A stretch of DNA of 64,000 bases from Candidatus Absconditabacteria bacterium (GTDB lineage: Bacteria; Patescibacteriota; Gracilibacteria; Absconditabacterales; Absconditicoccaceae): contig JAQUVI010000001.1 of NCBI GenBank assembly GCA_028693445.1, positions 124,001 to 188,000 of the forward strand, given 5' to 3'. The notes under the pieces are model-generated. The model was given only the letters and a program-made list of their open reading frames with translations. It was not told the origin of the DNA and did not search any database. Positions 19,674-58,893 of the stretch are shown in pieces (position 1 is the first letter of the stretch; each line of letters starts with the position of its first letter). A program made the translations under genes and the position numbers.

Positions 19674-21089
19674 TTATTTTAATTTTTCGACCACTCAACC
19701 CAATTCCAACAATTTCTCTTCTTCCCATTTATCGCACATCAGCTGTATTCCCATTGGCAACATTTCACCATTTTCTTCTATCATTCATCATGGGACTGAC
19801 ATTGCTGGGATTCACGCCATATTGGCTGGGATTGTGTACATATCTTCCAAGTACATCGTCAAAGGATCGTTGATTTTTTCTCAGATTTTTCCTGGGAGGG
19901 TAGGGGTTGTAGGGGTAATGATTGCATCATACTTTTGGAATATCTTTGAAAAATCTGCTTTGAGTTGCTCTCTTGCTTGTTGGGCTTTGAGATAATATCA
20001 CTCATAATTTGCCGAACTTAGAACAAATGTCCCTAGCAAGATTCTTCTTTTCACCTCTTCTCCGAATCCTTCTGATCTTACTTTTTGGTAATATTCAGAA
20101 ATATCTTTATATTTAGTTGTATCATCTTGTAATCCAAATCTAATTCCATCAAATCTTGCCAAATTTGTACTTACTTCTGCAGGCATCAAGGTATAATACA
20201 TCGGCACCGCATAACCCATAATTGGCAAATCAATTTCTTCGATTTCCCATCAAAGATCTCTTAATTTTTCTATCATTTCAATAAATCTGACTTTTATTCT
20301 TTCATCCAATCCTTCTCCAAGCGCTTCTTTTGGCAAGGCGAGTTTTGGTTTTCATGTTTCATTTTTGTATTTCGGCTCTTGCCAAGTGTCAGCTTCTACG
20401 CAGCTTTGAGCATCGTGAGTATCATGTCATGATATAGCTTTGAGCAAAATTCCAGCGTCTTCTACAGTTTTCGTCATCACTCCAACTTGATCTAGACTTG
20501 AAGCCATAGATTGTACACCATATCTAGAAACTCTACCATACGTCGGCTTAAGTCATACGATACCACAAAAAGATGCTGGCTGACGGACGCTTCCTCCGGT
20601 ATCTGTTCCCAGAGCTGCTATGCAGAGATCTGCGGCTACCGCCGCAGCACTTCCGCCACTTGATCCTCCTGGTACACGATCGATTCCGTGAGGGTTGATG
20701 GTTTTACCAAAGTATGATGTCTCGGTACTAGAGCCCATCGCAAATTCATCCATGTTGGCCTTCCCGATCATCAACCCTCCGTTTTTCTCGAGGGTCTCAA
20801 AACAGGTCGCACTATAAGGACTGATAAAATCCTCCATCATCTTCGACCCACACGAACTAATATATCACTTTGTCAAAATAATGTCTTTGAGTCCAATCGG
20901 CGCACCATGCAAAGGTTTTGTAATCAAATCGTCAATATGTGAACTTACATAATCTTCATGAAACCTCACAAAAGAAAAAGTCTGACTATTTTGTTCTTTA
21001 GCTTTGTTTATATAATGATTGATAACATCTTTGACATTTAAACTTCAATCATTTACAGAGTCAATATATTGTTTCAAAGTAAGATTCAT
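19674..21089 (-). CDS. gatA: Asp/Glu-tRNA amidotransferase subunit A
   Basis: This 471-residue amidase subunit of GatCAB releases ammonia from glutamine to convert Glu-tRNA(Gln) or Asp-tRNA(Asn). The amidase-signature triad is visible: Lys in APIGLKDI near residue 80, the cis-Ser in [14 protein letters not shown] and the nucleophile Ser in [14 protein letters not shown] near 175, then [16 protein letters not shown] encodes several glycines, for example in SCGSK. gatB and gatC are not in the window. A terminator hairpin belonging to the upstream operon lies just before its start. Confidence 0.95.
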
Positions 21090-21107
21090 TATTTTTTTCA
21101 AAAACTA

Positions 21108-21135
21108 AAAAAAGTGATCTTTCGATCACCTTTGT
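21108..21135 (-). terminator. Terminator of the giant surface-protein operon
   Basis: Read on the minus strand, the stem GGTGATC-GAAA-GATCAC ends in a run of seven T residues. It is located 37 bp after the stop of the 131-residue membrane protein and 19 bp before the gatA start, so it closes the 13-kb operon transcribed from 34194. Confidence 0.85.
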
Positions 21136-21171
21136 ATTTATTTTGCTACCAACTTTCAAGGTTATTTGTGA

Positions 21172-21567
21172 TTAGTTAAACAATTCAAAAAGGACATTTG
21201 AAGAAGATGTTGTAGTAGTTTTTTTTGTAGTTGTCGTTTTGATAGTAGGTTTTGTTGTAATAGTAGTAGTCGTTGTCTGTTGTACCACTACTGGTTCTTT
21301 GATTTCAGGGTCAGTTACAACAATGCTTTTTTCAGAAACAATTTCAGGTTCCTCTCACAAAGATTCTGAGCTTGTGTCGATTACAGGATTAAATAATTCT
21401 TCAACCTCATCTTTGTCAAAACCAAAAGATTTTGCTGTTTCTTGAGTAGTAGTTACAACATTGTCTTTGAGTTCACTAGCTCATTGTCTATCAATTAATC
21501 GATAAATTGCATAAGCTATTCAAAGCAAAATTGCTACAAAAATCATCCTTTTTAATAGAGTAGACAT
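21172..21567 (-). CDS. Small membrane-anchored protein with Thr-rich tail
   Basis: The protein has 131 residues. One N-terminal membrane helix (LKRMIFVAILLGIAYAIY) is followed by an acidic Glu/Ser/Asp-rich stretch and a low-complexity Thr/Lys/Val tail (VVVQQTTTTTITTKPTIKTT) ending SSSNVLFELFN. It is probably an extracytoplasmic stalk or linker protein. It is the last gene of the five-gene operon, 31 bp after the 1562-residue protein and before the terminator. The family is not recognised. Confidence 0.65.
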
Positions 21568-21598
21568 ATTTTTTACAAAATATATAAAGAAATTTTAT

Positions 21599-24500
21599 TT
21601 ATTTTTTGTATACATCAAGCATTTTAGTGAATTCATCAGCTCCTGGAGGAAGTTGTTGCCAAAGTTCTGGACTATATTCGATAAGTACAGAAGCACCATT
21701 GAAGATCATATTTCTTCTTTGTATTCTTTTTGATTCTTCAGATCAACTTACACGGAACCATCTAGCAAGATTAGACCTTTTTTTCTCTACAAGATTTTCT
21801 ATTCATCATCATATAAGTACTCATTTTACATGTAATCATCAAGCATTACATCGTTCATCATTCAAAGTATAATTTCCATTTTTTTCTGTTGCATCAAATT
21901 CTTTTGCTATAAAAATTCCTTTTACTATTTGTTGTTTGTTGCAATTGTCGTCTTTAAATTTTATTTTACCATCATTTACAATAAACATACCATTTACATC
22001 AATATCTCCATCAACAATTAGATTTGCATTTTTTACGATGAGAGTAAAAGGTTTTGTCACATTAGCATCTTTTATTAATGTAATATCGTTACCATTACCA
22101 TATAGAATATAAATATCTTTATTTGGTACTTTTTTTGCACTAGTAACTTTATTGTCTAATCAATCAGGTATGCTTGTACCTACTGCTAATTTTTCTGCTG
22201 TATCAATAAAAGTTCTTACCATAAAGTTTACATCGTTTGATTGGTAATCATTTTCATCCAATACCATTACATCAGCAAGATCGGTTCTTGTTACAATATC
22301 ATTTCTATTTATATCATAGAAGTCTTTAAGATCAATATCTGTAGCTTTGGGGGTAATTCCAAATGCACTTTTTTGTACAAGATATGGTTTGGTAATTGTA
22401 AAGTTGGTTTCACAAACATTATCTGTTTGAGAATCTTGTACTTCTAAATCACCATCACAATAATCATAAGTAATTTCTTTGAGTCTGAGTTTGTATTCTC
22501 ATAAATCATCTCATACAAAGCTACTAAAATTATTTCAATTTACAGCATAAGCCCAAGTATTGGCTCTCATATATCAAGAGAAATAATTAAATATTTTGTA
22601 TGTTGTTCGAGGATATGAACCAAAAAATCAACATTCTTTATCATAAATAATTTCTGTATCCTGATTTCCAGCTTCTCCAGGTTTTTGAATTTCAAAAACA
22701 CAATCCATAGAACTTTTTATGATTTTACCTTTGTCGCTTGTATTATTACAATCATCGCTTCCTGCAAAAGAGTCTTGATTTATTCTCCACCAGAAAGGTA
22801 AATATTCACCTTTTTCTATAGAAATATTTTCGTTGAATACAGATAAACATTGTGCAGGAGCTATATCTTCTATAGAACAGTTATGACATATTTTATCTCT
22901 ATATTCCAAAGGAGCGTAAGTATCTTCTTCATCAAGATATCTCCCAATTTCTGATCAGTTAGGCAAAAGATCACATTGTTCATAACCTTGTCTTATTCCA
23001 TCTCCACAAACTCACAAAATACCAATATCAAGCAAAACTTCATCTTCACAAGATAACTCAGCTCAATTTACACGACATTCTATATCCATGATTTTACTAT
23101 TATTTCAATTCAAATCGCTTTGTGAATATTCACATGTATATGACATAATATTGTCTTTTTCTATTTCAGATTTATCTCAATTTCCACAAATTATTTGCAA
23201 ACTAGCTTCTTGTCAATTTTTTGTAGAACACTCTACTTCTACAGTTCCATTTTCATCAGGATCATCGACTATTACAATAGGAGCTTCAACTTCTATATCA
23301 CAAGCAGGAAGGCTTCTTCTACAAGCAGTTTGAGTTTGATTTGTAGTTATCTCAGATCATATTTGACAAGTAGCTTGAGCTAAAGTTGCAGTATTTTCAT
23401 TTGAATATGTACAAGTTTTTTCGACTAAATTTAATATATTATTAATTCCAATTCAAATATACCCAGTGAAAATATCAGAGCCACCTCAACAATCAATACG
23501 ATATGGTGTGTAATAAAAATGGTATTGAGGTACACAAAGAATAGAATTTGTTGTATCATTTATTTTATTTACTGTCACTTCATGACATCTTGGTTGATGT
23601 AGGTTTATAACACCAGAACCACACGATAACTGTACTCAATCAGATGTTTCTATACATGCAGTATTTGAAATAAATTTTGTAGTTAAAACACAAACTCATC
23701 ACTGTTCTTCACAAACTTGTCCAATTCAATAATTCATATTTAATGCAGTATCACACGGTTCATCTCTAGTAATTAATCCATCCCCACATTCATAAGGTTC
23801 TTCTATAGTTACAGAACGAATAATATTGGTCCCAGTATTATAAGAAATTGTAGCTGTTGGATTAAAGGTTTGGAAATAAGTTCAATTAATTCTTCATTGG
23901 ATACTAATTGATCCTTGTTGTCAGATTCATATTGTTCCTGGATTATTAAAAGGAGTTATTGTAAGAGGTCAAACATTTGGTAATGAAATATTTACATTGT
24001 TTGCTGGTACATTACCATTATTTACGTAATTTATAGTAAAAGAAATATTGTGACCAGAAGCCGCTCTTACAAATCAGCTATTAATATTTCAGAGTTGTCG
24101 TGATTCATTATATACTGTAAGACCAAATGTAATATTGTCATATTCTATTACAGAAGATGTTAAAATAGAAACATCATTACCAGTAGTAACCTGAGTAGAA
24201 TCTACATAAATATTGGCTCTACTAACAAATTGAGTACCCACAGCAAGGGTTTCTGTCAAAGTACCTGTTACTAAGAAACTTTCTGTTTGCCCTGCTGATA
24301 TAGATTTTCATAAGTTTCGCTCAGTTTCATCTGTTCTTACAAAAGATGGTAATGTAAGTCTTATTTCTGGATTTCGAGCAGATTCAAGACCACTATTTCC
24401 ATAAGAAATTATATAAGTAATTGTATCTCAAATCTTGAAACCACTAAAAGGCAACGATTGTAAATCTATATATACATCAGACAAAGCAGGAAGATCGTAA

Positions 24501-26287
24501 GATATAGAAAAAGTATTGTTTGTAGTATCTAATTCTAATCAAGTAAATAACGCTTCTCAAGATAAACTAATAGATGTTCAATTAATAGGATATTCTTTTA
24601 ATATTGTAGAAAAATAAATAATTTTTTCCTCTCATCAAACAAGTGTAATATTTCTAAAAGATCCTGTATAAACAACAATAGATTCGGTTTGTGGATTTCC
24701 GTCCAAAATAATATCTTCAGATGTTTCTAATTGACTTTCTGTTTCATCCAAATAAGCAGAAAAATGTTTTGTACCATCATTTTTGTAAATATTATATAAT
24801 ACGTGTCAATTTTTGGTTGACAATACTTTTTGATTATCTGATGGATAAAATAAAAGATTGATTCATGATGCTGTTTTTTCTCATTTATTGGATATTTTAA
24901 TTTCATATATTAGTTGCGATCAGCTAGAAATTGTGTTTATTGAATTTGTAAGTGTTGCTTCAATATTTACATCAGCGCTTTTTACAAAAGTGTAACAAAT
25001 TCCAGAAAAACTATTGTTATTTATACTTTCTGTCTCATTACTAGCACTAATTGTTCAAGACAAACAAAATTTTGTTCATATTGGAAAATTCTGATCTATT
25101 GTTCATGTAATAATAGTATTTCACATTGCTCCTGGATTTAAATCGGGGAGATTAAGGTCTTTTATATTCAGATTTATTCAATCAACAGAGGCATTTAATT
25201 CAATATCTTTAAGTATTTCATTTCATCTATTTTTATACCAAATTGAAAATCAGATTCTATTTCAAGAAATTTCTGGATTTTCAGTTGTTTTATCTATATT
25301 TACTATTTGTAAATCTAAAAATGTTGGTATTGTATATGATGATGTTGCTGTGTTATCTGACAATAAAACTTCGCGTCATCCTGTTATACTACTTGTTGTA
25401 GTTATAATAGTTCAAGCATCAGGAGATCCTGACAAACCAGCTTTCATAAGATATGTTTTCGTTGTTCATGAAGGAATTTGTCAAAGCTGCCATATATTTG
25501 TAGATGAATTTATTTCATTGTTATCCAAAGAGAGCTGAGGTTCTCCCAAAAAGTTTCCCAAAACACTTGAAAGTATTACATTTTCATTACTTGTTTTTGA
25601 TCAATTGTTTTTGATTTTTATTTCGTAAATAGCTTGATCTCTATCAAAAATTGGTTTTGGATCAAGTAAAATTTGTTCTATGCTGTAATTTGCTATTGGC
25701 CAAATAAAATTTGTTGTCTGGTTTATACAGCTAGTAGAACCAATATTTGTTACACAAGGAATAACATGAAATTTATCAAAACCCAAAGAAGATGAAATCA
25801 CTTGCCCAGTAATAACGACATTTATAGATCATCTTGCTGGAACTAGATATTGTGGGTTATAAAGTCATCAATATTGACCAACCAAAGAGCCATTCATCAG
25901 ATTGTATGGACTAAGGTTTGTTATTTTTATTCTAGGATTTAATCATACAGAAGGTAATTTTAGAAAAAAATGTTTTGCTGTATATTGATTATTTTCTATC
26001 TTATATTTAAATACTACTATACTTCATGAAACAGCAAAAGAAGATGCAACGTTGTTTTTGATCATTGTAGTGTTTGTTGTACAAGTAGTATTGTATGGTA
26101 TAGCCAAATTATTTGCTACACAAGTACAAAATCAATTAGTATTGTTACAACTTTGTCATTGGTCGCATATATAGCTCTGTCCATTTGTGGTAGAACAATC
26201 AGCAGGTTCTTGTAATTGAGCAAAAGTGCTTCCTGAAACAAGAAGTCCTATAATGATACTACTGATAGTGAAAAGTTGTTTTTTCAT
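21599..26287 (-). CDS. Giant secreted surface protein (1562 aa) with adhesin-like repeats and CGDG cysteine motifs
   Basis: An N-terminal signal peptide (MKKQLFTISSIIIGLLVSGS) is followed by a Cys-rich segment. About residues 60-760 hold successive beta-sandwich repeats of the DUF11/CARDB type (for example SGNRIGFSIWYKNRGNEIL and SGSQLIYEIKISNKGEKTA). After that, Cys-rich segments carry CGDGLITRDEPCD and CGDGIRQGYEQCD, the myxococcus cysteine-rich repeat signature (CGDG...E.CD). The C-terminal 300 residues form a globular domain (LIVKNANLIVDGDIDVNG), reminiscent of a beta-helix, without an obvious membrane anchor. It is a likely cell-surface adhesin or fibre. It shares the CGDG motif with the two genes upstream in the same operon. 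Abundant in-frame TGA shows it is native. Confidence 0.8.
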
Positions 26288-26324
26288 AATTAAACAAAAC
26301 AAATAAAATATTTAGATTAGTTTG

Positions 26325-28193
26325 CTACTTAATTTGTCAGATAACTTCTATAGCATATTCTTGGCCTGGTCATAGAATTGTGTTTGGAAAATTCCAAACA
26401 AGATAACCTTCATTTGTGGTTATAGGATTTAGATCTGTGTTAGTTCCTATTAATATAGAATTCATATATTGAATTGTGTTTGGTCGATAATCAATAATTC
26501 TAAATCATTGCAAAGGAGCTGTTCAATTGTTTCTATATCTTATAGTAAATCTAACTATATCTCCGGGTCAGGCAGCTTCTGGACTAGCAGTTTTTGTTAC
26601 TTGTAAATTATATGATGGTTGAGATATTATTACGTTTGTGTTTGTTTGTGTTTGTGCAATTCATTGACCATCAGTAAAAATTATTTTTCAAGTATTTGTA
26701 TGTGTCCCCACACAACTAGGGTTACTGTTTGCCAATCAAGAAAAGCTAACAACAAAAGATTGTCCTGGTGTCAATCAATTTGGTAAGGTCCACTGAGTCA
26801 TATTTCCAGCAGAATTTTGTGTCGCCTGAATATTTGTAGTTACACTTCATTCTATCAAAGAAAAACAACTTGGCCATATATCTTCAACACGAACATCTGT
26901 TATAGTATTTGGAGTAGCGTTGTTTGCTGTGATAGTAAATCTTACGGTTTGCCCTCATTGAATAGTATTTGGATTGGCTGTTTTGCTTATACTTACTGGA
27001 TCTGTAGCACAAAGTACTTGTTTTGTAGTGTTTCCTGAAATAGTTTGTCAGTTGCTTAATGCAGATCGATTTACAATATTAAGCGCAGCATTACAAGCAA
27101 GAAGTTTTGCATTTATCAAAATATATCAGTTTTGTCCAGCAGCAAGATTAAACCCAGTATATGCTATTCTCAAATTTCATCATACATCTCCTGTACTAAA
27201 AAGAACATTTGTTACTCAATTTATTTCACTAGAAACATACTCCAATCCACTTGGTAAAAAATCTTCAATTGACACGTTTTCTAATATTTGTGATCCTGGA
27301 TTTGAAAAACTTATTCTAAATTGAAGAGTATCCTGAGGCGCATAGTTTTGTTCTACTGTTAGAGTTTTTGTAACTATCATACTTCCTGTTTCTGTCCCAT
27401 CTCAAATTCCACTACAATCAATTTTACATTTACCTGCTTGTCCATTTTCTGCTCAGTCATCACAGATTTCGTTTGGTTTAATAGAATTTCCATGCCAAGG
27501 TAAAAATGTTCATAATTGATTTGTTAGTCATCAAAGACCATCACTTGTTCCTGTCTCTTTGTCAATTACACCATCCCCACATCTTGCTACATAATAATTG
27601 GTACAAGATATTTTTGTGGTAAGATTTGGGTTTATAATTACATTTAGTGATCCATTATGGAGAGAAAGATCATTTGCTCTTATATAATAATAATTTAATG
27701 ATACACCATTTGCGTTTTGGATAACAGATCTTTCATTATTAAATGTTACAAATTGTCCTGCAGGTTCGTTTCTTGCTATAGTTGTTGATCATAATAAATT
27801 GGCTCCAGTAGCGTCAACAGTTAATATATTAGAACTGTCAGAATCTATGCTTGTAGATGGTACAAAGTTAGCAACATAAGGAAATTTAATATCTCCAACA
27901 AAAGTGGCTTGATTATATCCTCTTATATATGTTTCTGTTTTATCAAAAACATAGCTTACCGGTCCTTTTGGTTGACCAACACGAAGATATACAGGAGATC
28001 AATCATAAAAAGCTAAATCTTGGGTGATATCACAAGTTCAATTGTAAATAGTTGTTTCTCGGTTTAATGTTCTGTTTTCGTTTGCACTACTTGGAACATC
28101 ACCAATTACATTATCAGCAAATGTTGTACTTGTTATTCATAGTACAATACAAAGAACCAATATTTTTTTGAGCTGTCATTTTAGGCTTTTCAT
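26325..28193 (-). CDS. Secreted DUF11-repeat surface protein
   Basis: The protein has 622 residues with a signal peptide (KKILVLCIVLGITSTTFA). The N-terminal beta domain reaches about residue 215. A myxococcus-type Cys-rich segment follows (RCGDGVIDKETG ... EICDDGAENGQAGKCKIDC). Three DUF11-type repeats come next, each starting with a T-K-T / K-T-A-x-P motif (IVTKTLTVEQNYAPQDTLQF, VSISKTANPNTIQGG, LQVTKTASPEAAGPGD) and ending with W-x-P/L-P-x-L-x-P-G. DUF11 repeats are found in large surface proteins. Internal gene of the operon, with gaps of 33 and 37 bp to its neighbours. No anchor segment is visible. Confidence 0.8.
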
Positions 28194-28226
28194 TACAATT
28201 AACTAATAGTATAAAGATTGTTATAT

Positions 28227-29285
28227 TTAATTGATAAACACTTCGACAAATGCTTCAGTAAATGTTGGAAGACAAATACTACTACAGAAGTGAAAGCTTG
28301 GATCGTCTCCATTTATCATTCCATCAGTATCGTTTTCTGTATCTCAATCATCACATTCTTCAAAACTCATATTATTTGGATCTCCATTATAGAAGTCTCC
28401 TGCTGGCTGTATAATTTCATCTCCACATTTTTCATCTGCTCATCCAAATCAACTACATGTACTATTACAACATCAAAGTGTTCAATTCACACAAGCAGCA
28501 CCTGTTTCTGTGTTGGAATCACATATTTCTGGAGTAAATCAGGTGCTTACCCAAGAATTTACAGGATAGAAAGAATCATTTGATTTATATCATGTATGGG
28601 TGCTGATTTTTTTATCACCACATCGTTGAATAATATAATTTGAACATGTAGAATTGTTAAAAGAATTAGATCGTGCTCTTCTTCTCAAATTACTTACCAT
28701 TCAAGTAGTAACTCAAACATCAGAAAAGTAATCCAGAGATGGAACTATTCTGCGTCGATAGCTTGAATTTGTTTCATTTGCATATCATTCTGCTTTTTTA
28801 ATAACAAAGTTGTATTTAAATCAAACCACAGGGTTATTTATTCATGTTATTCATGTAACAGTCGGAATTTCTATATTTACAAATTTTGTTGCTCAAATAG
28901 CTCTTACTGATTGTTTGTATTCGAAAGCTCGAGATCTAAGAACAAATAAATAATCATCTATTGCTCAAATATTTCATCCTATATCTTTTGTATACAACAT
29001 ATTTCCTGTGGACATAAAGTATTGTACATTGGTTGTGGGCATAAGTTGGATAAGATTATATGCTTGTGTCGGATTTATATTGTATACATAATTTGCTTTT
29101 GGTACAAAAGAGTAGTCTGGAAGACCATTCTGGTTGTTGTCTTGATATAGATACATATGTTTTGTTGTACAATTGGAAAATGCTGTTGATGATTGTGTAC
29201 ATCAAATTTCATTTGCTGCATATCCAATAGATACAAAAGATATAAGCAATATAATATATGATAATATTTTTTTTGGTTTAAGCAT
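28227..29285 (-). CDS. Secreted Cys-rich surface protein paralogous to the downstream genes
   Basis: The protein has 352 residues with a signal peptide (MLKPKKILSYIILLISFVSI). The middle region is beta-rich. The C-terminal 130 residues contain CSNYIIQRCGDKKIS, CGDEIIQPAGDF and EECDDGDTEND, the same myxococcus-like CGD...E.CDD cysteine repeats as in the two downstream proteins; CTNYYVARCGDGVID in the next protein is clearly homologous. The gene is 25 bp downstream of the 1627-residue protein and 33 bp upstream of the DUF11 protein. It is a likely partner subunit of the same surface structure; function unknown. Confidence 0.75.
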
Positions 29286-29310
29286 TTTATTTATATGATA
29301 TATAAATATA

Positions 29311-32300
29311 TTAGTCTTCATGGTCTATTTCTCAATCTTCATTACCATCTAAATCTTCTCCTTCTCATGATTGTGACTCTGAAGGGTCCTTATCATTTTT
29401 GCTATCGGGAATTTCTTTAATTTTTTTATGTACTGATAGACCTAGATTTTTCATTTCTGATTGTATTTCTCCACTAATTGAATTGCTTCTACCAAAGAGA
29501 TTAGAAGTATATTTTTTATCTGGTGTCTGTTCTGCTTTATACGTATCTAATTCTTCTACAACTTCAACATCTTTGATTCTTAATCATACAGATTCATTTA
29601 AACATTCGCCAAGAAGATAGAATATTACATCTGAGTTTAATTTAATTATTTTAGAAGAAATGTCAAGTGGATTATTGGTTTCTGTGCTTGGTATTTTTAT
29701 TTCTTTTTTTATGATTAATTCAGCTAAGTTGTCTTCATTAATATGTTTTGAAATATCGTCATTATTTATAGCCTTCTGAATTTGTTTTACTAGGAGCTTT
29801 CTATGTCTAGGATCTTGTTTTAGGTTAGCTATAATTCGTTGTTTTCCATCTTGTTGTAATTTTATTTGTTCTTTTTCATCCTTATCTTTCCCTATTTCAT
29901 ATAGAGAACCTTTGATTATATTAGTTTTACCAAATGGAGTAGCTCCATATCAACGATCTGTTACTCCAGATCTATAGAATGCTGTATATCAAAAAATATT
30001 TTTAGGAGTTTCTCTTTCAAAAGTTTCATATTTATTATTTTTTTGTTTTTCAATAAAAGATTTTCTATTCGCTAAAAGATCTTTTTTTAGTTCTCCTGAA
30101 AAACTAGTTTTTCCAGGTCATTCATAATTCAAAAATAAATTTCATCTTCACTTTCTTATAGTTTTTCAATTTTCTATTTTTCAGTTAAAAACTTCATTGA
30201 TAGTCATTCCTTCATAGTTTTTTTCATAAGCAAAAATACTTACATAATTATCAATAATATTTTGTTTTTCTTCAGCGGATCAATTTTTTAGTTTGTTTCC
30301 AATAGTTGAATTTGATCCAATAATATTCAAAAGAGACGTTTCTGCTTTATCAAAATTTCCAGAAGAAATATTTTTGATAAAATTATTGAAGTCTATTGTT
30401 TTTTCATGTTCTATATCAGGAACATCTTTTGCGTTAGGTAAGTTTATATTAGTAAATGTTTCTGATAAATCAGGATTTGAAACATTTAGAATTGTATTTT
30501 GATTAGTTCCAATAGTTTTGTACTCCATAATTAATTTGTCATCTGGAGAAGATTGGTAGTCCAAAATATATTTTCAATCAGATTTTTTGTATAATGTTAG
30601 TGTACCTGTGTTAAATTTTTGTCATAAAACCAATCAATCATTTAAAGTTACGTCTGTATTAGACAATAATTTTCCTTCATTATCAAAAAGTGATTTATAG
30701 AGTGTCTTTTCGTTAGCTATATTATTTCATGTTAAATTAATAGTGTCTATTATTTGATCAATTTTTGTTTTGTTGAAATATTCAAAACCATTTTCTTTGA
30801 ATTCTATATCTTGTATATCAATTGGAGGAATATTGTTTCAATCCAAACGTTTTGCATCATCTAGATTTTTTGCTCAAAGACAAAGTACACGATCTATACC
30901 TCCAGGCATGGTTGTTGTGTAAGCAGCAATAGGTCAAACATTTCCTATTATTAAAGTATTGTTTGTATATATAAATTGTTCATTTGATCATTCTGGTGAA
31001 TAGTGAATATTTAGTAATTTATAAAGAGGTACTTGTTTTTCATCACTAGAAAAAGGTACGTAACTAATTTTTATTTTATTTTGATCTGATATTTTTTCTA
31101 TAATAATTCATCTTTTGGTTCAGTTTATAGTTTCTGTTTTATTGAATAATCCTTCAAGATATAAAGCATACTTATCCAAATCTTTTCCTGCATCGATATG
31201 GTCAATAACTCCTTGATTCATTTCTTGTTCTGTCATAAGAACTTGTTTTGAATTTGGAAGATATTTATTTTTCCATGTAGAAATTCTTGCACTAACATAT
31301 ACTCCCAAAAATCATATTTTATTTGATCATCAAGAAGAAGATCATACTGCATCTCAACCTGTTTCAAAAGGAATTTCTGGATCTACTTGTCAATCTAAAT
31401 TATCTCATTCTCCACCATTACTATCTCCTGTATAGTTATCTGATTTTGTTCAGAAGAATCGGCTACCAGCAGTGATTCCCGCAGAAAATCTAGTCAGATC
31501 TAGTTTTCAATTGAGATTCATGATTACATCTCATTTCCATTGGTCAATATTTCCTTGTTGTATAATTCTCAAAAGAGATCAAATTGCATCTTCTTTTTCT
31601 TTAGTGTTTTTGTATATAGAATTTATTTCTGAAATAATGCCTGATTTTTCTAAATAATCAACAACAAAACGAATATTTTCTTTAAATCTATTTAAATTAT
31701 TTCCTATAAAATCTTTGTATATACCTTTTTGCAAAGAATTGAGATTTGTTTCTAAGTGCGACTTGATAGACTGTTTAGTAAATATTTTAAGTCAGCTAAT
31801 ATCAAATACTCTATTTGAAGTATTTTTATAGGTTTTTTCCAATTGCATAATTCCCATCAATGGATCTTTTTCATATGAAGCTCAAAGTGCAGCATAAAGA
31901 CCAATTCAGTTTGTTCCTACTTTTGCTCAAGCTCCTCATTCTATACCAAGATATTTGGCATTTTGTACAGCATCCAAAGAAGCAGAACTTACTTTTGCAT
32001 AATTTATTTGTTCTGCACGAGTAAAATTTATATCAATACCTCAACTAATTCAATTTTTTCATAGATAAAATGCTGGTCATCCAGCTATATGGTATTTACT
32101 TCTTCAGTCTGAAGATACATTTCCTTTCCCTATTTTATAAGACAATTTTATATCAGATAGATTTGTTCAAATCTCAATATTTTGAATATTAAAATCATCA
32201 AGAATTTTCTTTTTAGCTTGTTCTTTATAAAAAGTTTTGTTTACATTGGACATAATCATGTCCTTTTCTGTTGCCGCATCAAATGAAATTTGCAAACCAA

Positions 32301-34194
32301 TATTGTCTACCGTATCCATTATTTTTTGTAGTATAGTTTCTCTAAGTTCTACAGATCAGTATTCATTTATTATATCTACAAAATCTGAATTTCATTTTAT
32401 ATATGTATCCAAAGATCTTCTCAAATCTTCCATTTCTTTGATTGTATCAATTTGTTGTAATCTTTTTCCTTCTTGTCATGTTAGTACATCATAGAGATCT
32501 GCTTGATTAATTGATGATCATCAAGTTACTTTTTCAACCGCGGCAAGAAAAAATACTTTTGATTCAGGAAATTTTATAAGAAGATTTATTAGATCTTGAT
32601 TTGTTGGATTTGTTTTTGCTAGAATATTATTGATTTCATTTATATGTTTTTTTGAATATACATCTTCAAATCATGATAAAATATTAGCATAGTTGGATAA
32701 ATAATCTGGATTTTTTTCTGATTCTTTTACCATCAAAGAAATCATTTTTGTTATATTTTTTACAACAACTTCATCTCATTTTGTCCCTCATAGTATAGCA
32801 TTTTGAGTTTTTCTTGCTTGTTCTATGGTGAAATATAATTGTTGCCCAGAAATATTACCGACATCACCAACTTTAAATTGGTCTTTATTTTTGTTGTCAG
32901 CAGATATGATTCAATCACTATTTATATCACTTAAAAACAATAAAACATTTTCTTTTGTTATGTTTCATGATTTTAGTAATATTTTATTATTATATCGTTC
33001 TTTTGTAACTCTAGAAATATTGGTTCTAGACTGTAATAAGTTTGCAAAAGTCACAAGATCTTTTCGTTGTGCGTTGTTGAAAAGTTTTGTAAGTTTTATA
33101 AAATCCTTGAATGCTCAATCTTTTCTATAAGGAATATCCAAGTTATCTAGGACTTTTTTTGTATCTTTTTTTGTCATTTCAGATTGAGTCGGATCATCTG
33201 TAATTTCTCACAAATCTTTTAATATTAGAAATATATTTGTATCTTCTTCGATTATAATGTTTTTTTGTTTTGCTTTTTCTTGTATATCCAAAATGATACT
33301 TGCAAGACCATTTTCTGCACTTAAATTTATTTCAAAATGCCTTCTTTTTATTTCTTCATTATCTTCTTTAAATATCTTTGCCAAAACTTTAGAAATATTT
33401 TTGTCACTATAAATATCTTCAATATTTTCCTCTGTTAAGAATTCTTTGTGATTATCAGGATTATGATAACTATAATTACCATCTTTTCATACAATATCAT
33501 ATTTATCTATATGATCTTCGTCAGTTTTATATTTTTGTCTTTCAAAATTTGCATTTTGATTATTTGCGTTTATATCATAATTATCTCATGATTGATAATT
33601 TTGTGATTCTTGATACACTCAATCTCCATGATAAACATTTTCGCGAGTAAGTCCTGGATGACTTATTCTTGATCACCTTCAAAGGCCACTACCATCACTA
33701 GTAGATGCCAAAGCAATAATCTCATCTTGGAGAAGATTGAGTTCAAGTTTTGTTAATTCTATATTTGTTTTTCATGCTTCTTCTTTTTCTTTGTTTATTA
33801 TTTCAAAATGGGTTTGAAAAGTACTTACTGAGTTTTGAATATCTGGTGAAGATTTTGAAATATCTATTTTATTATCAAAAATATCTTTAAGAAATTGTTG
33901 GAAATATTCATGAATTTTTTCGGTTTTTTGTTTAGGGGTAGTTAAGCTTTTATCTCATATTATATTCTTTAGATTTTTTCAGGTATTCCAATTTTCTATA
34001 ACAAAAAAATCAAATAACGCTTCAGAAGCAAGATCAAGATTTTTAATTTTTTCGTGGCTTTTATGCTCTTCTAAACTAGAAAAATCTATTACATTATCAT
34101 GTTTGTTTCTTATGATATCTCTTAGTTTGTCTAATTCATTTCTTGTAGATATTTCTCTATTATCAGAGTTTTCTATCCTGCTAAGTCTAGCCAT
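29311..34194 (-). CDS. Giant protein of unknown function (1627 aa), first gene of the surface-protein operon
   Basis: A single reading frame of 1627 codons, open across many TGA glycines. There is no signal peptide and no clear transmembrane segment. The N-terminal 900 residues are mostly helical, Lys/Glu/Asn-rich and may include coiled coil (RNELDKLRDIIRNKHDNVI). Residues about 730-850 contain Gly-rich beta sequence (GGPAFYLGKNGISGGIDINF, GIEGGAGAKVGTNGIGLYA) that resembles outer-membrane-barrel-like strands. The C-terminus ends in a strongly acidic tail (GNEDGEIDHED). I do not recognise any family. It heads the operon whose other members are secreted, so a role in making, exporting or anchoring the surface proteins is possible but purely inferred. 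Confidence 0.75.
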
Positions 34195-34424: not shown

Positions 34425-35462
34425 ATGATAAAAGGGAGATTATCAAAATGAGCTGTTTTTGTTGTGCTTCTTGCTATTTTTTTATGATGAATAACAAAGG
34501 CAGAAACTAGTTCAGTAACAGATATCAAACAGCTTTTTGGTATGTCATGTGAGATGACTAGAATCCCTGCTATATGAAAACCTATAAAAATGACTTTTGA
34601 TCCAAGTCAATATACTCAAGAATTAGAATTACTAACAAAGAAATGATACAATAGAATAGATATGATTAAAGAATTTGTCTACAATGGTCAGCCTATAAAA
34701 ATTCTTTTGTGAGAAAAATGTGATTTACCAGTTCTTAGGATAAATCAACAAGAATCTGTAAATGACATTTGAGTTGATCATATAGAAAAAAGAAATAATA
34801 AATTATTGATGTACTGATCAAAAGATTGATTTGCAACATTGATTTCATGTGATTTATGAACTTTAATATGAAATTCTTATATACCTTTTGATTTACCAAA
34901 ACAAAAATTAGAGTCAGAAAACAATTCAGATCAAGTCGCTCAAATCGACACAAATATAGTCACAAAAAACACAAATATATCTTCTAAACAAACTTTTTAT
35001 CAACCAAAATTATTACCACCATTGAAATTAGAAAATAAAATAATTCACCCACAAGATGCTTTATATTTGCTAGGTAAACCAGTATCGGAATTGATAACTT
35101 TTTTTGATTGAAATTGGAAGCGTGATAAAAAAGAATTAGCTGAAATATTGAATATAACAAATTATAGATGAACAAAAGAACAAAACATCCAGATTAGAAA
35201 CTACCTACTTTCTTATATAACTATTCAATTTGAGGCAATAGAAACACCAGAAATTGAGTTATCGGTAAAGGAATACCAGTTAATTCAACAAAAGGTTGTT
35301 TCAGATATTGTTAAAATGCGATGATATATACGAAAGTATGATAGGCGAGCTCTATTTCAAGAAATAGGTGAAGATATTTCTTTCTATGAATGAACAAGAG
35401 CTCAAAACTTAAAAATAAGAGAGTTTTTACTAAAGAAAATAAAAACAAAACCTAAAAATTAA
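34425..35462 (+). CDS. Secreted protein with C-terminal internal duplication
   Basis: The protein has 345 residues. A signal peptide (about residues 8-26: KGAVFVVLLAIFLGGITKA) includes two adjacent TGA glycines. The N-terminal half contains three cysteines (MSCEM, EKCDL, ISCDL). The C-terminal half holds two copies of an unrecognised helical motif: LAEILNITNYRGTKEQNIQI and LFQEIGEDISFYEGTRAQNL, each followed by RNYLLSYI or REFLLKKI. TGA use marks it as native. Only 4 bp separate its TAA from the next ORF, which lacks TGA entirely, so the two may be co-transcribed. Function unknown. Confidence 0.7.
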
Positions 35463-35466
35463 AGAA

Positions 35467-36045
35467 ATGGAAAAAGTTGTTTACTCAAAAGAAAACAGAA
35501 AAGAATCATATCCTTTCATAGGATGTTTCTGTGATATTGGGGGGATATATTATGAATTAACATCTTTTTGTGAACGAAAAAAATTCTTTAAAGAAGAAAA
35601 TAGTTCACAGGAAAAAAAGGTTGACGGAGAAAAAACTGTCAACGAACTCTTTAAAAAAATTTTTCCAAAAGAAAATAATGTAGAAAAAACGAAAAAAAAA
35701 TACATTCTTTTTTATGGAAAAAGTGCAATGGAAAATCTTTCATCTTTCTATAACCATTTACTTTTCTCAATTACACAAGAATGGATAGACGATGAAGAGG
35801 ATATTGTGATAATGCTTTTCTTGGAATATTTTAATTCAGGAACAGCGAAAGCATTAATACAAATAATAAACATAATTGTTAGTGATTTCAAAAAAAGAGC
35901 TAGATTTATCTGGCTATCGGATATAGATGATAGCGATAGTTTTGATTCTGGAAAAGAAATACGTGAAATTGTTTCATTCGAAGGTCTTAATCCTGATGAA
36001 ATGTTTCATATTGACGAAGTGGTTTATTATTTTAACAAGAAATAA
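35467..36045 (+). CDS. SiaC-like (DUF1987) protein; TGA-free, possibly acquired
   Basis: The protein has 192 residues. The C-terminal two thirds align with SiaC/DUF1987: GKSAMENLSSFYNHLL matches the family's GRSxPExxxxFYxPxLxW region, and LEYFNSGTAKALIQII matches the diagnostic LEYFNTSSSKxLLxIL, whose Ser/Thr residues are the site of partner-switch phosphorylation. A Lys/Glu-rich insert separates the N-terminal strands from this core. SiaC proteins act with SiaB kinase and SiaA phosphatase in biofilm or c-di-GMP control; neither partner is visible here. None of its roughly 8 glycines uses TGA. A strong terminator follows. The family call is by motif, not alignment. Confidence 0.6.
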   Translation: MEKVVYSKENRKESYPFIGCFCDIGGIYYELTSFCERKKFFKEENSSQEKKVDGEKTVNELFKKIFPKENNVEKTKKKYILFYGKSAMENLSSFYNHLLFSITQEWIDDEEDIVIMLFLEYFNSGTAKALIQIINIIVSDFKKRARFIWLSDIDDSDSFDSGKEIREIVSFEGLNPDEMFHIDEVVYYFNKK

Positions 36046-55005: not shown

Positions 55006-58000
55006 ATGAAAAAATCATTTCTTCGTATTTTTGGTATGGCTACCTCTTTCTTATTGATTTTTAGTAATTTTTGATCAGCATGGCAAGCCGTCATAGATAC
55101 TTCTTTTTGAGATTGAGGAATAACTGATTTTTTTAATATTTGAAGTGGCTTTTTTAATAGAGTAAGGGCTCTTGTAATTCAAAATGACTGAAAAATTATC
55201 GTTGGTTGAAGTTTTACTTCCTATAATTGAGAAAATATAAAACATATAACTAGATTAAATCCTGATTGATCTAGAGACGTTTCATTTATGACAGGTATTG
55301 GTTTTGAGGATGAATATTATTGATATTTAATAGAAACAATAGCACTACAAAATGATGGGAAAATTTTGATTGGTTGAAGTTTTACTTCCTATAATTGACA
55401 AGAAACAAATAATATTATTAGATTAAACAATAATGGTTCTATTGACAACTCTTTTATAATATGAAGTGGTTTTAACTCATCAAATAACTGATCAGTAAGA
55501 AAAATAGCACTACAAAATGATGGGAAAATTTTGGTTTGAGGAATTTTTACTTCTTACAATGGAATTTCTGTAAATTGATTAGTTAGATTAAATCCTGATT
55601 GATCTATAGATTCTTCTTTCAATGTTTGAGAAACATTTAATAATATATACTGATATACAGATTTAAGCACAATTACACTACAAAATGATGGTAAAATTTT
55701 GATTGGTTGAAGTTTTGAAACCCCTATTAATAATTATTATTGTGTAAATAAGTATCAAGAAGAACAACCACAATACACAACAGAAGAAAGTTGTTTATCG
55801 GCGGGTTATTGTTATAATAAAGATTGTTTCATTGAATGAGAAACAGAACAAAGTTGTATAGATAACTGAAACCGTCGAGAAAATTCAGGTTTTATGTGGT
55901 CTCAATCAACAATAAAAAACCTAGCAAGATTGAACTCCGATTGATCTATTGATACATCTTTTTTACCAAAAAATAATTTATATAAAGTAAATGATATAAA
56001 TATACAAAACGATTGAAAAATTATTGTTTGATGATTTAACGAAACATATATTTATACATTTAGCCCTTTTTCTGTTTTTGCAGATATAGCGCAAAATCCT
56101 AATATATTTAGATTAAATCCTGATTGATCTATAGACAATTCTTTTATTGCCTGAGAGTGATTCCTCAAATGATATGATACAGCTATCATAAATAAAACGA
56201 TAATTCAATCAGATTGAAAAATTATTGTCATATGAGATTTTTTATCATATAATTGACAATGAGCTAATTCAATAGCAAGACTAAATTCTGATTGATCTTT
56301 TGACTCTTCTTTTAATATTTGAGATTGATTCGGTTCAAATATTTGAGATTGATTTATTGAAGATTGATGATTTTGATGATATAGAATTGCCTACGACATA
56401 AAACTAACAAATGATTGATGATTTATGGTTGGCGGTGAATTTGCTTCTTACAACAAAAACGAAGTAAATAATATTGTCAAGTTAAATCCTGATTGATCAA
56501 ATAATACAAATTTAAACAAAAATGACATAAAATGATTTGACAACACTGTACATGAAATAAAAACACAAGATGATGGGAAAATTTTAGTTGGTTGAGAATT
56601 TTCTACTTACAATGAACAATCTGCAAACTGACTTATAAGACTAAATGCTAATTGATCTATAGATAGTTCTTTTGATATTTGAATATGATTTGACGACTTA
56701 AAATGATCTGCATATATAACAACCATAGAAATACAAGATGATGATAAAATTTTAGTTGGCTGACGATTCACTTCTTACAACTGACAACCTGCAAACTGAC
56801 TTATAAGACTAAATGCTAATTGATCTATAGATAGTTCTTTTGATATTTGAATATGATTTGACGACTGAGAATGATCTGCATATATAACAACCATAGAAAT
56901 ACAAGATGATGATAAAATTTTAGTTGGCTGACGATTCACTTCTTACAACTGACAACCTGCAAACTGACTTATAAGACTAAATACTAATTGATCTATAGAT
57001 ACTTCTTTTGATATCTGAGATGGGTTTGATGATTGATATTGATACGCTTACATATATACCACAAGAATACAAGATGATGATAAAATTTTAGTTGGCTGAC
57101 GATTCAATAATTATAATACATATTATGTAAACAATATTGTAAGATTGAATTATGATTGATCTATAGATACTTCTTTTGATATCTGAGATGGGTTTGATGA
57201 TGAAGTATATAAGATTGAAATATGAAAAGAATGATGAATTTTAGTTTGATGATACTTCACTTCTTACAACCGACAACCTGCAAACTGACTTATAAGACTA
57301 AATGCTAATTGATCTATAGATAGTTCTTTTGATATTTGAATATGATTTGATGACTGAGAATGATCTGCATATATAACAACTATAGAAATACAAGATGATG
57401 ATAAAATTTTAGTTGGCTGACGATTCAATAATTATAATACATATTATGTAAACAATATTGTAAGATTGAATTATGATTGATCTATAGATACTTCTTTTGA
57501 TATCTGAGATGGGTTTGATGATGAAGTATATAAGATTGAAATATGAAAAGAATGATGAATTTTAGTTTGATGATACTTCACTTCTTACAACAAAGAACTA
57601 ATAAATTACATATCATCATTGATATGAAATACCCCTGTTTATCTACCAAACTCTAACGAATTATTGGATATAAAAAACGAATTCAGCAAAAAAGGTTATA
57701 ATTATCAAAATATTGATTTTTGGGGAGATACATTTTTTGGAGATTCAAAAATATCTCTAAAAGAAACTAACTGAAAAATATTTAGAAATTTAAATATAAT
57801 TACAGATGCAGGAGTTCTTTATTTACCAGAAAATTTAGAATTCAAAAAATCTGATAATTCCAATTATACTTTAACTATATCACCTCCAAGTAATTATACA
57901 GGAACTACTACTGTAGACAGCAAACCTGTCCTCTCAGCTATCTCTGTTGGTAGTACTACAGAATCACTTACTCTAACAAATTGAGCCGCTACTTTGGGGA

Positions 58001-58893
58001 TGTCTGTTGTTTGATCCACTATCTGAGATCCTGTTTCTATCTACTCATCTCAAGATTGATCTTCTTGGACCTATGAAAAATGAGGGATTGTTTCTGATAT
58101 CGACGGACAACCATATGTTTCTTTTACTACGGATCACTTTACATACTTTGCTATAGCTTGATCTACCTGATCTTTTGTGATCAACAATGATGAAGCTTCT
58201 ACTACTTCTCAAATAGTTAACTTGACTATCTCTGCTCCTACTGCTACTGGTATGATGTTTTCTAATGATGGTATTACTTGGTCAGGTCGAGAAGTTATCT
58301 CTACTACAAAAACTTGGGAGCTTTCTGAGTGATACGAAGAAAAAACTGTTTATGCACAGTTTATCGCCAACTGAGAAATTTATTCTACCTCTGATTCTAT
58401 CTTGTATTGAATTGTTTGAGATTGAACTCAATGAAATCTAACGCTAACCATCACATGATGAGTAACCGAGTGTGTCTACTGAACCTCTCTAGATATGAAT
58501 GCTCAAGATGTCAAAATTGGTATCCCTTATACCTTCTCAGGAACTTTTCCTTCTACTTGGTATTGTCAAGATTATCAAGGTATTGATTGAGGATGGACAT
58601 TAACTATCCAAACAACTGATTTAACAAATGAAAAATGAAATACCATTTCTGGTAGTAATCTTCTTATTTCTCATGATACTGTTGTAGTTCAAGGTGACTT
58701 AGCTTGTACAGGTGATGTTTGAACTCCTATACAATTTTATAGTGCTCCTCATGTAATTTTTGCAAAGGCTTCAGAAAGTAATAAAATTTGTAAAGTAAGT
58801 GCTAATGATGTATCATTATTAGTTAATGTACCTGCCAATCAAGCACCAGGTAGTTATAGTGGTACTCTTACTTTGACTATGAATGGGTTTTAA
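55006..58893 (+). CDS. Secreted delta-60 (DUF5122) repeat surface protein
   Basis: The protein has 1295 residues with a signal peptide (MKKSFLRIFGMATSFLLIF). About residues 30-875 hold some 14 repeats of the delta-60/DUF5122 type, each near 56 residues: NPDGSIDxSFxIGxGF, then IxIQxDGKILVGGxFTSYNG, then RLN. They should fold as beta-propellers. Several repeats around 56641-57591 are nearly identical at DNA level, so duplication is recent. One repeat carries a Cys-rich insert (YCVNKYQ ... SCLSAGYCYNKDC). After residue 880 come Ig-like domains and a C-terminal module nearly identical to that of the protein at 2184-4541. TGA supplies many glycines. It is probably a cell-surface adhesin. Confidence 0.85.
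56641..57591 (+). repeat. Recent tandem duplications in the propeller gene
   Basis: The 168-bp unit (56 codons) recurs with very high identity at spacing 168 bp (ACTAAATGCTAATTGATC at about 56640 and 56808; one variant at 56976). Within this block a stretch of 205 bp is identical at 57066-57270 and 57387-57591, 321 bp (107 codons) apart. All offsets keep the reading frame. Copy number may vary between strains and may be collapsed or expanded in assemblies. Confidence 0.85.

What the first reader, a model, noticed from the sequence alone, without database searches (positions are those of the whole stretch)
21108..34194. Thirteen-kilobase operon of giant surface-type proteins
Five minus-strand genes with gaps of only 25-37 bp end in one terminator: a 1627-residue cytosolic-type protein, three secreted proteins of 352, 622 and 1562 residues that share CGDG/E-CDD cysteine repeats and DUF11-like modules, and a small Thr-rich membrane protein. 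Shared motifs and tight spacing suggest one multi-subunit surface structure (fibre, adhesin complex or host-attachment apparatus). This is the best candidate in the window for an undescribed system.
Basis: partly seen in the sequence, partly recalled or inferred. Interest (0 to 1): 0.75.

Follow-up and report, generated by a model that had tools for sequence, protein, structure and literature searches.

The report
Giant paired surface-protein operon, Gracilibacteria
An operon in an ultra-small SR1-type (Absconditabacteria) bacterium pairs a giant protein of unknown fold, without an export signal, with exported modular cysteine-rich proteins; the giant plus one exported partner recur side by side across the bacterial class, which points to an undescribed surface system probably used to contact host cells.

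Summary
Five minus-strand genes lie 25-37 bp apart and end at one terminator: A (1627 aa, no signal peptide, 2 Cys), B (352), C (622), D (1562; B-D have signal peptides and CGD...CD cysteine motifs, DUF11 in C and D) and E (131, membrane, Thr-rich).

The conserved core is A followed by D; B, C and E vary. All five recur in order, followed by gatA, in the genus. In 45 loci from many families of the class a Cys-poor giant precedes, on the same strand, a secreted Cys-rich partner (median gap 40 bp). This includes standard-code relatives. There the giant no longer matches A significantly by profile, but it keeps a lone C-x-N-x-S/T motif about 100 aa from its C-terminus, a D-type partner with the same C-terminal beta-solenoid, and in most loci a nearby gatA.

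A has no significant match in Pfam, NCBIfam, PHROGs, PDB or Foldseek, and diverges fastest (29% identity where gatA has 90%).

Best reading: a two-protein surface/host-contact module, with D the modular Sec-exported fibre or adhesin and A its dedicated partner, possibly acting at or outside the membrane. The function is inferred. Where A acts, and how it would get there, is open.

The parts
29311..34194 (-). Gene A: giant protein of 1627 aa (code 25), no signal peptide or TM segment, 2 Cys, family of unknown fold
   Evidence: homologues; no family or fold match
32890..32928 (-). A aa 423-435: EF-hand-like calcium-loop motif DINSDGIISADNK
   Evidence: such a loop in 16 of 27 A-type proteins, 2.6 expected in shuffles
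31270..32100 (-). A aa 699-975: six predicted long (14-16 residue) amphipathic strands with a helical insertion
   Evidence: AlphaFold model m8a5fca0100d7, local pLDDT about 75-92 for most strands, overall pTM 0.38; face composition
29602..29604 (-). A Cys1531 of the motif FYLLGECLNES, invariant in the family alignment
28227..29285 (-). Gene B: 352 aa (ATG 29285; 364 aa from ATG 29321), signal peptide, two CGD...CD motifs, head domain shared with C
26325..28193 (-). Gene C: 622 aa, signal peptide, B-like head with CGDG...CDD, three DUF11 repeats
21599..26287 (-). Gene D: 1562 aa (ATG 26287), signal peptide, DUF11-type repeats, three CGDG-type motifs, conserved C-terminal domain
21602..23029 (-). 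D C-terminal domain, last 476 aa: family-wide; its distal part a predicted beta-solenoid ending LPPGA-EF
   Evidence: alignment A3; model pLDDT 72, pTM 0.73; distribution; no PDB fold match
21172..21567 (-). Gene E: 131 aa, N-terminal membrane segment, Thr-rich tail; found only in the genus
21110..21133 (-). Intrinsic-terminator-like hairpin after E
19674..21101 (-). gatA, the downstream housekeeping neighbour; a gatA-like gene also lies near the pair in most loci of other families of the class
   Evidence: identified by sequence, not by a family search

Best explanation
The operon encodes a two-protein surface/host-contact module of Gracilibacteria-class ultra-small bacteria, elaborated here to five genes. 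D (with its offshoots B and C) is exported by Sec, stabilised by cysteine pairs, and made of exchangeable repeat modules (DUF11 here, InlB-type repeats in a relative) between a conserved head and a conserved C-terminal solenoid: a fibre or adhesin that reaches the host. A is its obligate partner, made from the same transcript. I think A most likely acts at or outside the cell envelope as the base, anchor or membrane-inserting part, exported by a route other than a classical Sec signal. Shown: gene order, conservation, repeats, family boundaries. Predicted: signal peptides, solenoid, long amphipathic strands, calcium loop. Inferred: single transcript, location of A, physical A-D contact, host attachment.
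For: Same-strand adjacency of A and a secreted Cys-rich partner in 45 loci, median gap 40 bp, 30 of them under 100 bp. D C-terminal profile in 37 of the 49 own-family genomes held and A profile in 29; a second, diverged A type in 40 genomes of other families of the class. Module swapping in D: DUF11 against Flg_new_2/InlB repeats with the same C-terminal domain. Fast divergence against a conserved neighbour: A 29%, B 46%, D 51%, C 62%, gatA 90%, rny 94% to RAAC1_SR1_1. For A outside the cytoplasm: homologues L042 and L046 (E 1e-31, 2e-24 over most of A except its C-terminal domain) begin with signal-peptide-like sequence; EF-hand-like loop in 16 of 27; Pro/Glu/Gly-rich C-terminal tails. Relatives attach to hosts through fibrous surfaces and have giant surface proteins with DUF11 (PMC8080830; also PMC13059738).
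Against: A lacks a signal peptide and TM segment in nearly all homologues, in line with a cytoplasmic protein. The two Sec-signal homologues lack the C-terminal domain and have other neighbours. The fold model of A has low global confidence (pTM 0.38) and no library match. No expression, localisation or binding data. Some genomes with D show no detectable A, which may be divergence or loss.
Confidence: 0.5

Rival explanations
1. A is a cytoplasmic scaffold or dedicated chaperone for a surface attachment structure whose exposed part is D. It would work like the cytoplasmic proteins behind surface adhesins in the attachment organelle of Mycoplasma pneumoniae (an analogy from general knowledge, not a homology claim).
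For: No signal peptide or hydrophobic segment in over 40 A-type proteins from two genetic-code groups; very low cysteine content beside a Cys-rich partner; acidic/proline-rich tails in several.
Against: Two homologues carry Sec-like signals; calcium-loop motif and fast divergence are more usual outside the cell; poor coiled-coil or scaffold signature, with long amphipathic strands instead.
Confidence: 0.27
2. A is a secreted or delivered membrane-active protein (beta-barrel pore or effector) acting on the prey/host envelope, and D presents or delivers it.
For: Six long strands with one hydrophobic face and one face rich in Gly/Ala/Ser/Thr (50% against 32% for other strands of A) and relatively few charges; weak fold resemblance to outer-membrane barrels only; relatives kill their hosts (PMC8080830).
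Against: No significant fold match (E above 2), low-confidence model, no export signal, no known toxin domain. Charged residues still make up 20% of the polar face.
Confidence: 0.13
3. Ordinary co-location: B, C and D are structural surface-layer or adhesin proteins, and A is an unrelated protein kept next to them by ancestral gene order with gatA.
For: The gatA neighbourhood shows that gene order around the locus is old in general; A and D diverge at different rates.
Against: In several own-family genomes the A-D pair lies away from gatA, beside ribosomal protein genes or elsewhere, yet A stays directly before D; gaps are 25-40 bp in most.
Confidence: 0.1

Closest known systems
Giant DUF11-containing membrane/surface proteins of Vampirococcus lugosii and other Absconditicoccaceae (PMC8080830, PMC13059738)
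   Same: Same lineage, same code 25, very large surface proteins with DUF11, proposed role in host recognition and a fibrous surface
   Different: Those papers list long proteins with membrane localisation or adhesion domains one by one. In the passages read they do not describe a conserved A-D gene pair, a signal-less giant partner, or its class-wide spread
DUF11 / B_ant_repeat proteins (PF01345, TIGR01451)
   Same: C and D carry these repeats above the curated cut-off
   Different: The repeat is a generic spacer module. The head and C-terminal solenoid of D and all of A lie outside it, and relatives replace DUF11 by other repeats
Myxococcus-type cysteine repeat / DUF4215 (TIGR02232, PF13948)
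   Same: CGDGxxxxxExCDxG spacing resembles this repeat
   Different: Scores stay below the curated cut-offs (best 4e-4 and 0.0025 among 20 members); the motif here flanks larger domains rather than forming arrays
Mycoplasma attachment organelle (adhesins plus cytoplasmic partners)
   Same: Works-like analogy: adhesins at the surface, large signal-less partners
   Different: No sequence relation was tested or claimed; from general knowledge only
Type IV pili of Patescibacteria used for episymbiosis (PMC12206443)
   Same: Also proposed for host contact in ultra-small bacteria
   Different: No prepilin, PilB/C/T or PilY1-type domain in this operon (Pfam)

Membership tests
DUF11 repeat proteins (PF01345 / TIGR01451) | Repeat matches above the curated cut-off | tested here: met
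   C: 97.8 bits against 24.6 and 107.1 against 24. D: 37.9 bits against 24.6. B, A, E: no match
Myxococcus cysteine-rich repeat / DUF4215 | Score above the curated cut-off | tested here: not met
   TIGR02232 15 bits against 20.8 for the D C-terminal region; 9 of 20 homologues match weakly, best E 4e-4
Sortase-anchored (LPXTG) adhesins | C-terminal LPXTG motif, hydrophobic segment, positive tail | tested here: not met
   B, C and D end without such a sequence; D ends LPPGADEFTKMLDVYKK. A separate gene beside A in another family does end in an LPKTG-type signal
S-layer proteins with SLH domains | SLH domains | tested here: not met
   No SLH match in Pfam at E 0.1 in any of the five proteins
Type IV pilus tip adhesins (PilY1-like) | PilY1 beta-propeller domain with pilus genes in the operon | tested here: not met
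   No such Pfam match and no pilin in the operon
Two-partner secretion (TpsA/TpsB) | TpsB with POTRA domains and TPS domain in the partner | tested here: not met
   No matching Pfam families; relatives are described as having a single membrane (PMC8080830)
The A family defined here | Giant signal-less, Cys-poor protein with lone C-x-N-x-S/T near the C-terminus, directly before a secreted Cys-rich protein with terminal solenoid | tested here: met
   Motif in 19 of 19 standard-code-type and 24 of 25 code-25-type proteins examined (variant C-x-N-E-A/G in three of the latter); adjacency; homology between the two types not significant by profile
EF-hand / dockerin calcium loops | DxDxDG-type loop | tested here: inconclusive
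   Loop pattern enriched (16 of 27 against 2.6 expected) and an EF-hand match in homologue L046 only below cut-off
Transmembrane beta-barrels / pore-forming proteins | Closed barrel fold with lipid-facing strands | tested here: inconclusive
   Long amphipathic strands predicted; Foldseek E above 2 to any barrel

The most novel reading that the evidence does not exclude
A-D is a class-wide, previously undescribed host-contact machine of Gracilibacteria/Absconditabacteria/Peregrinibacteria-type bacteria, in which a 1100-2250 aa protein of a new fold leaves the cell without a classical Sec signal (or inserts into a membrane) and works with a modular Sec-exported fibre. It would have been kept in place across the change of genetic code while its sequence diverged beyond profile recognition.
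Probability: 0.3. Interest if true: 0.85.

Novelty: new variant of a known kind. Interest (0 to 1): 0.66.

Why it matters
How ultra-small episymbiotic and predatory bacteria recognise, hold and feed on hosts is largely open outside Saccharibacteria. Here is a gene pair recurring across a whole class, single-copy in this genome, fast-evolving and with an unknown fold, in a lineage whose cultured members attach to other bacteria and in some cases kill them. It gives named protein targets for localisation in cultured Absconditicoccaceae. It also shows how code-25 genes and extreme divergence hide conserved systems from ordinary annotation.

Tried and rejected
1) Reading the window with table 11 gives no relevant ORFs. 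2) A single-sequence scan of genome contigs with A found nothing; the scan with the D C-terminal alignment worked. 3) Viral contigs hold no relative of D and PHROGs has none for A or D, so a phage origin is not supported. 4) Fold search of the D C-terminal domain gave only immunoglobulin-like and other hits with E above 0.01, taken as uninformative. 5) Fold search of A against PDB and viral structures gave nothing significant. 6) Profile-profile comparison of the two A types was not significant (probability 10% or less), although the second comparison's top hit aligns exactly the C-x-N motif; I therefore claim motif plus synteny, not proven homology. 7) Tested whether the published hypervariable PTD-repeat gene of a Gracilibacterium (PMC6851277) belongs to this pair: its locus (L086) holds no A or D. 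8) Wide-alignment A5 at phylum level found no relative outside the own genome, so A of this type is not seen elsewhere in the phylum at that sensitivity. 9) Promoter scan is at chance level and was not used.
Full report
Origin and code. The window lies on an 1.17 Mb, 11-contig assembly. Standard translation gives fragments; code 25 (TGA=Gly) opens every gene. The closest named relative met here is Candidate division SR1 bacterium RAAC1_SR1_1 (CP006913.1), of the same genus by the tool's kinship, with gatA 90% and rny 94% identical. This is therefore an Absconditabacteria/SR1-type member of the Candidate Phyla Radiation.

The observation. The five genes, sizes and spacing are as described. A has no hydrophobic segment anywhere. 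B, C and D start with strong hydrophobic stretches typical of signal peptides, and E with a membrane segment. A terminator-like hairpin follows E. DUF11 is above cut-off in C and D only; the CGD...CD cysteine motif is in B, C and D.

Conservation in the genus and family. A homologues were found in 8 of 40 relatives with a single sequence and in 34 of 288 class genomes with a profile, 29 of them in the own family. The D C-terminal profile hits 44 of 288, 37 of them in the own family. Reading the neighbourhoods: A-B-C-D-(histidine kinase)-E-gatA in L016 and L017/L024, A-B-C-D in L015, L027, L029 and L030, A-C-D in L025, and A-D in L018-L021, L028, L034, L035 and L037. Where B and C are absent, D carries their type of head at its own N-terminus. 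So A + D is the core, and B/C look like split or duplicated parts of the D architecture. The inserted gene in the two genus relatives is a PAS-HisKA-HATPase histidine kinase, absent here.

Spread beyond the family. The A profile reaches other families (f14, f22): there the order is [about 240 aa secreted, ending in an LPXTG-like signal in one] - A-type (1112-1151 aa) - secreted Cys-rich protein of 771-805 aa (in L045 preceded by a 394 aa one), and the C-terminal solenoid of the latter matches that of D (hhalign 95%). A profile of these D-type proteins then found the same solenoid in families with standard code. In L060, L061, L063, L065 and L066, and again in 14 further loci from families f18, f20, f21, f23, f26 and f27, the secreted Cys-rich protein directly follows a giant, signal-less, Cys-poor ORF, and a gatA-like gene lies nearby in most. 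In L076 and L077 the D-type ORF is cut by the contig end and its solenoid is not seen. Two f7 loci (L057, L058) have the solenoid protein without a giant partner. The 45 compiled pairs are all on one strand; the median gap is 40 bp and 30 are under 100 bp. The compiled list was put together by hand from the neighbourhood tables, some genomes appear more than once under different loci of the same species group, and in L047 and L049 the two genes are not directly adjacent.

Are the two A types one family? Within each type, profiles match strongly. Between types they do not (hhalign probability 10% or less). What they share is gene position, size, lack of signal peptide, cysteine poverty, and one motif: C-x-N-x-S/T, in 19 of 19 of the second type (x-G in one) and C-x-N-E-S/T in 21 of 25 of the first, with three C-x-N-E-A/G variants and one without the Cys, lying about 80-250 residues (mostly 90-130) before the C-terminus. 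This makes common descent likely but not proven.

What A is. No match in Pfam, NCBIfam (only one sub-threshold hit), PHROGs or PDB sequences. The AlphaFold model of residues 390-1560 from 14 sequences has mean pLDDT 68 and pTM 0.38; it predicts six long strands with a helical insertion, well scored locally, and no significant fold relative. The strands have one hydrophobic face and one face rich in Gly/Ala/Ser/Thr. That fits a membrane barrel but also other sheet folds. An EF-hand-like loop is enriched in the first type, not in the second. Two homologues, lacking the C-terminal domain, start with Sec-like signals. These points favour an extracytoplasmic role; the missing signal in all others speaks against.

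What D is. A Sec-exported modular protein: conserved head, exchangeable repeats, conserved C-terminal domain (model pLDDT 72, pTM 0.73; the distal part a beta-solenoid) without a recognisable anchor. In relative L050 the repeats are InlB-type. It occurs once in this genome. The fast divergence of A to D against gatA and rny fits contact with a changing partner such as a host, which is an inference.

Comparison with the literature. Papers on Vampirococcus and Strigamonas note giant surface proteins with DUF11 and other adhesion domains and suggest host attachment (PMC8080830, PMC13059738). In the passages found I saw no mention of this gene pair; the library holds only open-licence papers and I did not read supplements. 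The novelty claim is limited accordingly.

Verdict. The unit is, however, the A-D pair rather than the five genes, and the surface location of A is unproven.

Noticed in passing
window 55006-58893 (+): 1295 aa protein with 14 DUF5122 beta-propeller repeats (E 8e-166) and 110 TGA-encoded glycines; another probable giant surface protein.
   Followed up: no
window 34425-36045 (+): Divergent neighbours of the operon: a 345 aa secreted protein of unknown family, 66% identical in RAAC1_SR1_1, and a SiaC-family protein (Pfam 2e-11) only 31% identical there.
   Followed up: partly
L016:13680-14603, L017:3634-5172: A PAS-HisKA-HATPase histidine kinase inserted between D and E in both genus relatives but absent in the window.
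   Followed up: partly
L042:6249-12286, L046:5851-11547: Tandem exported proteins in other families: an A homologue with a Sec-like signal followed by a second exported protein whose sequence looks like repeated amphipathic beta strands.
   Followed up: partly
L043:3937-4653, L044:5548-6270, L045:13229-13942: A small secreted protein directly upstream of A in other families, in L045 ending with an LPKTG sortase-type signal and related in sequence in the other two.
   Followed up: no
L038, L054-L056: Very large solo D-type proteins (over 3000 aa, 70-134 Cys) with the same C-terminal domain, apart from any A.
   Followed up: no
L015:16804-19077 and equivalents in L027, L029, L030: A conserved 745-758 aa secreted protein directly after D in several related genomes; function unknown.
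   Followed up: no
standard-code A-type proteins, N-termini (L067, L068, L073, L081): A short shared N-terminal motif resembling F-K-E-x-R-L-V-F in proteins without signal peptides; could be a targeting or docking signal.
   Followed up: no
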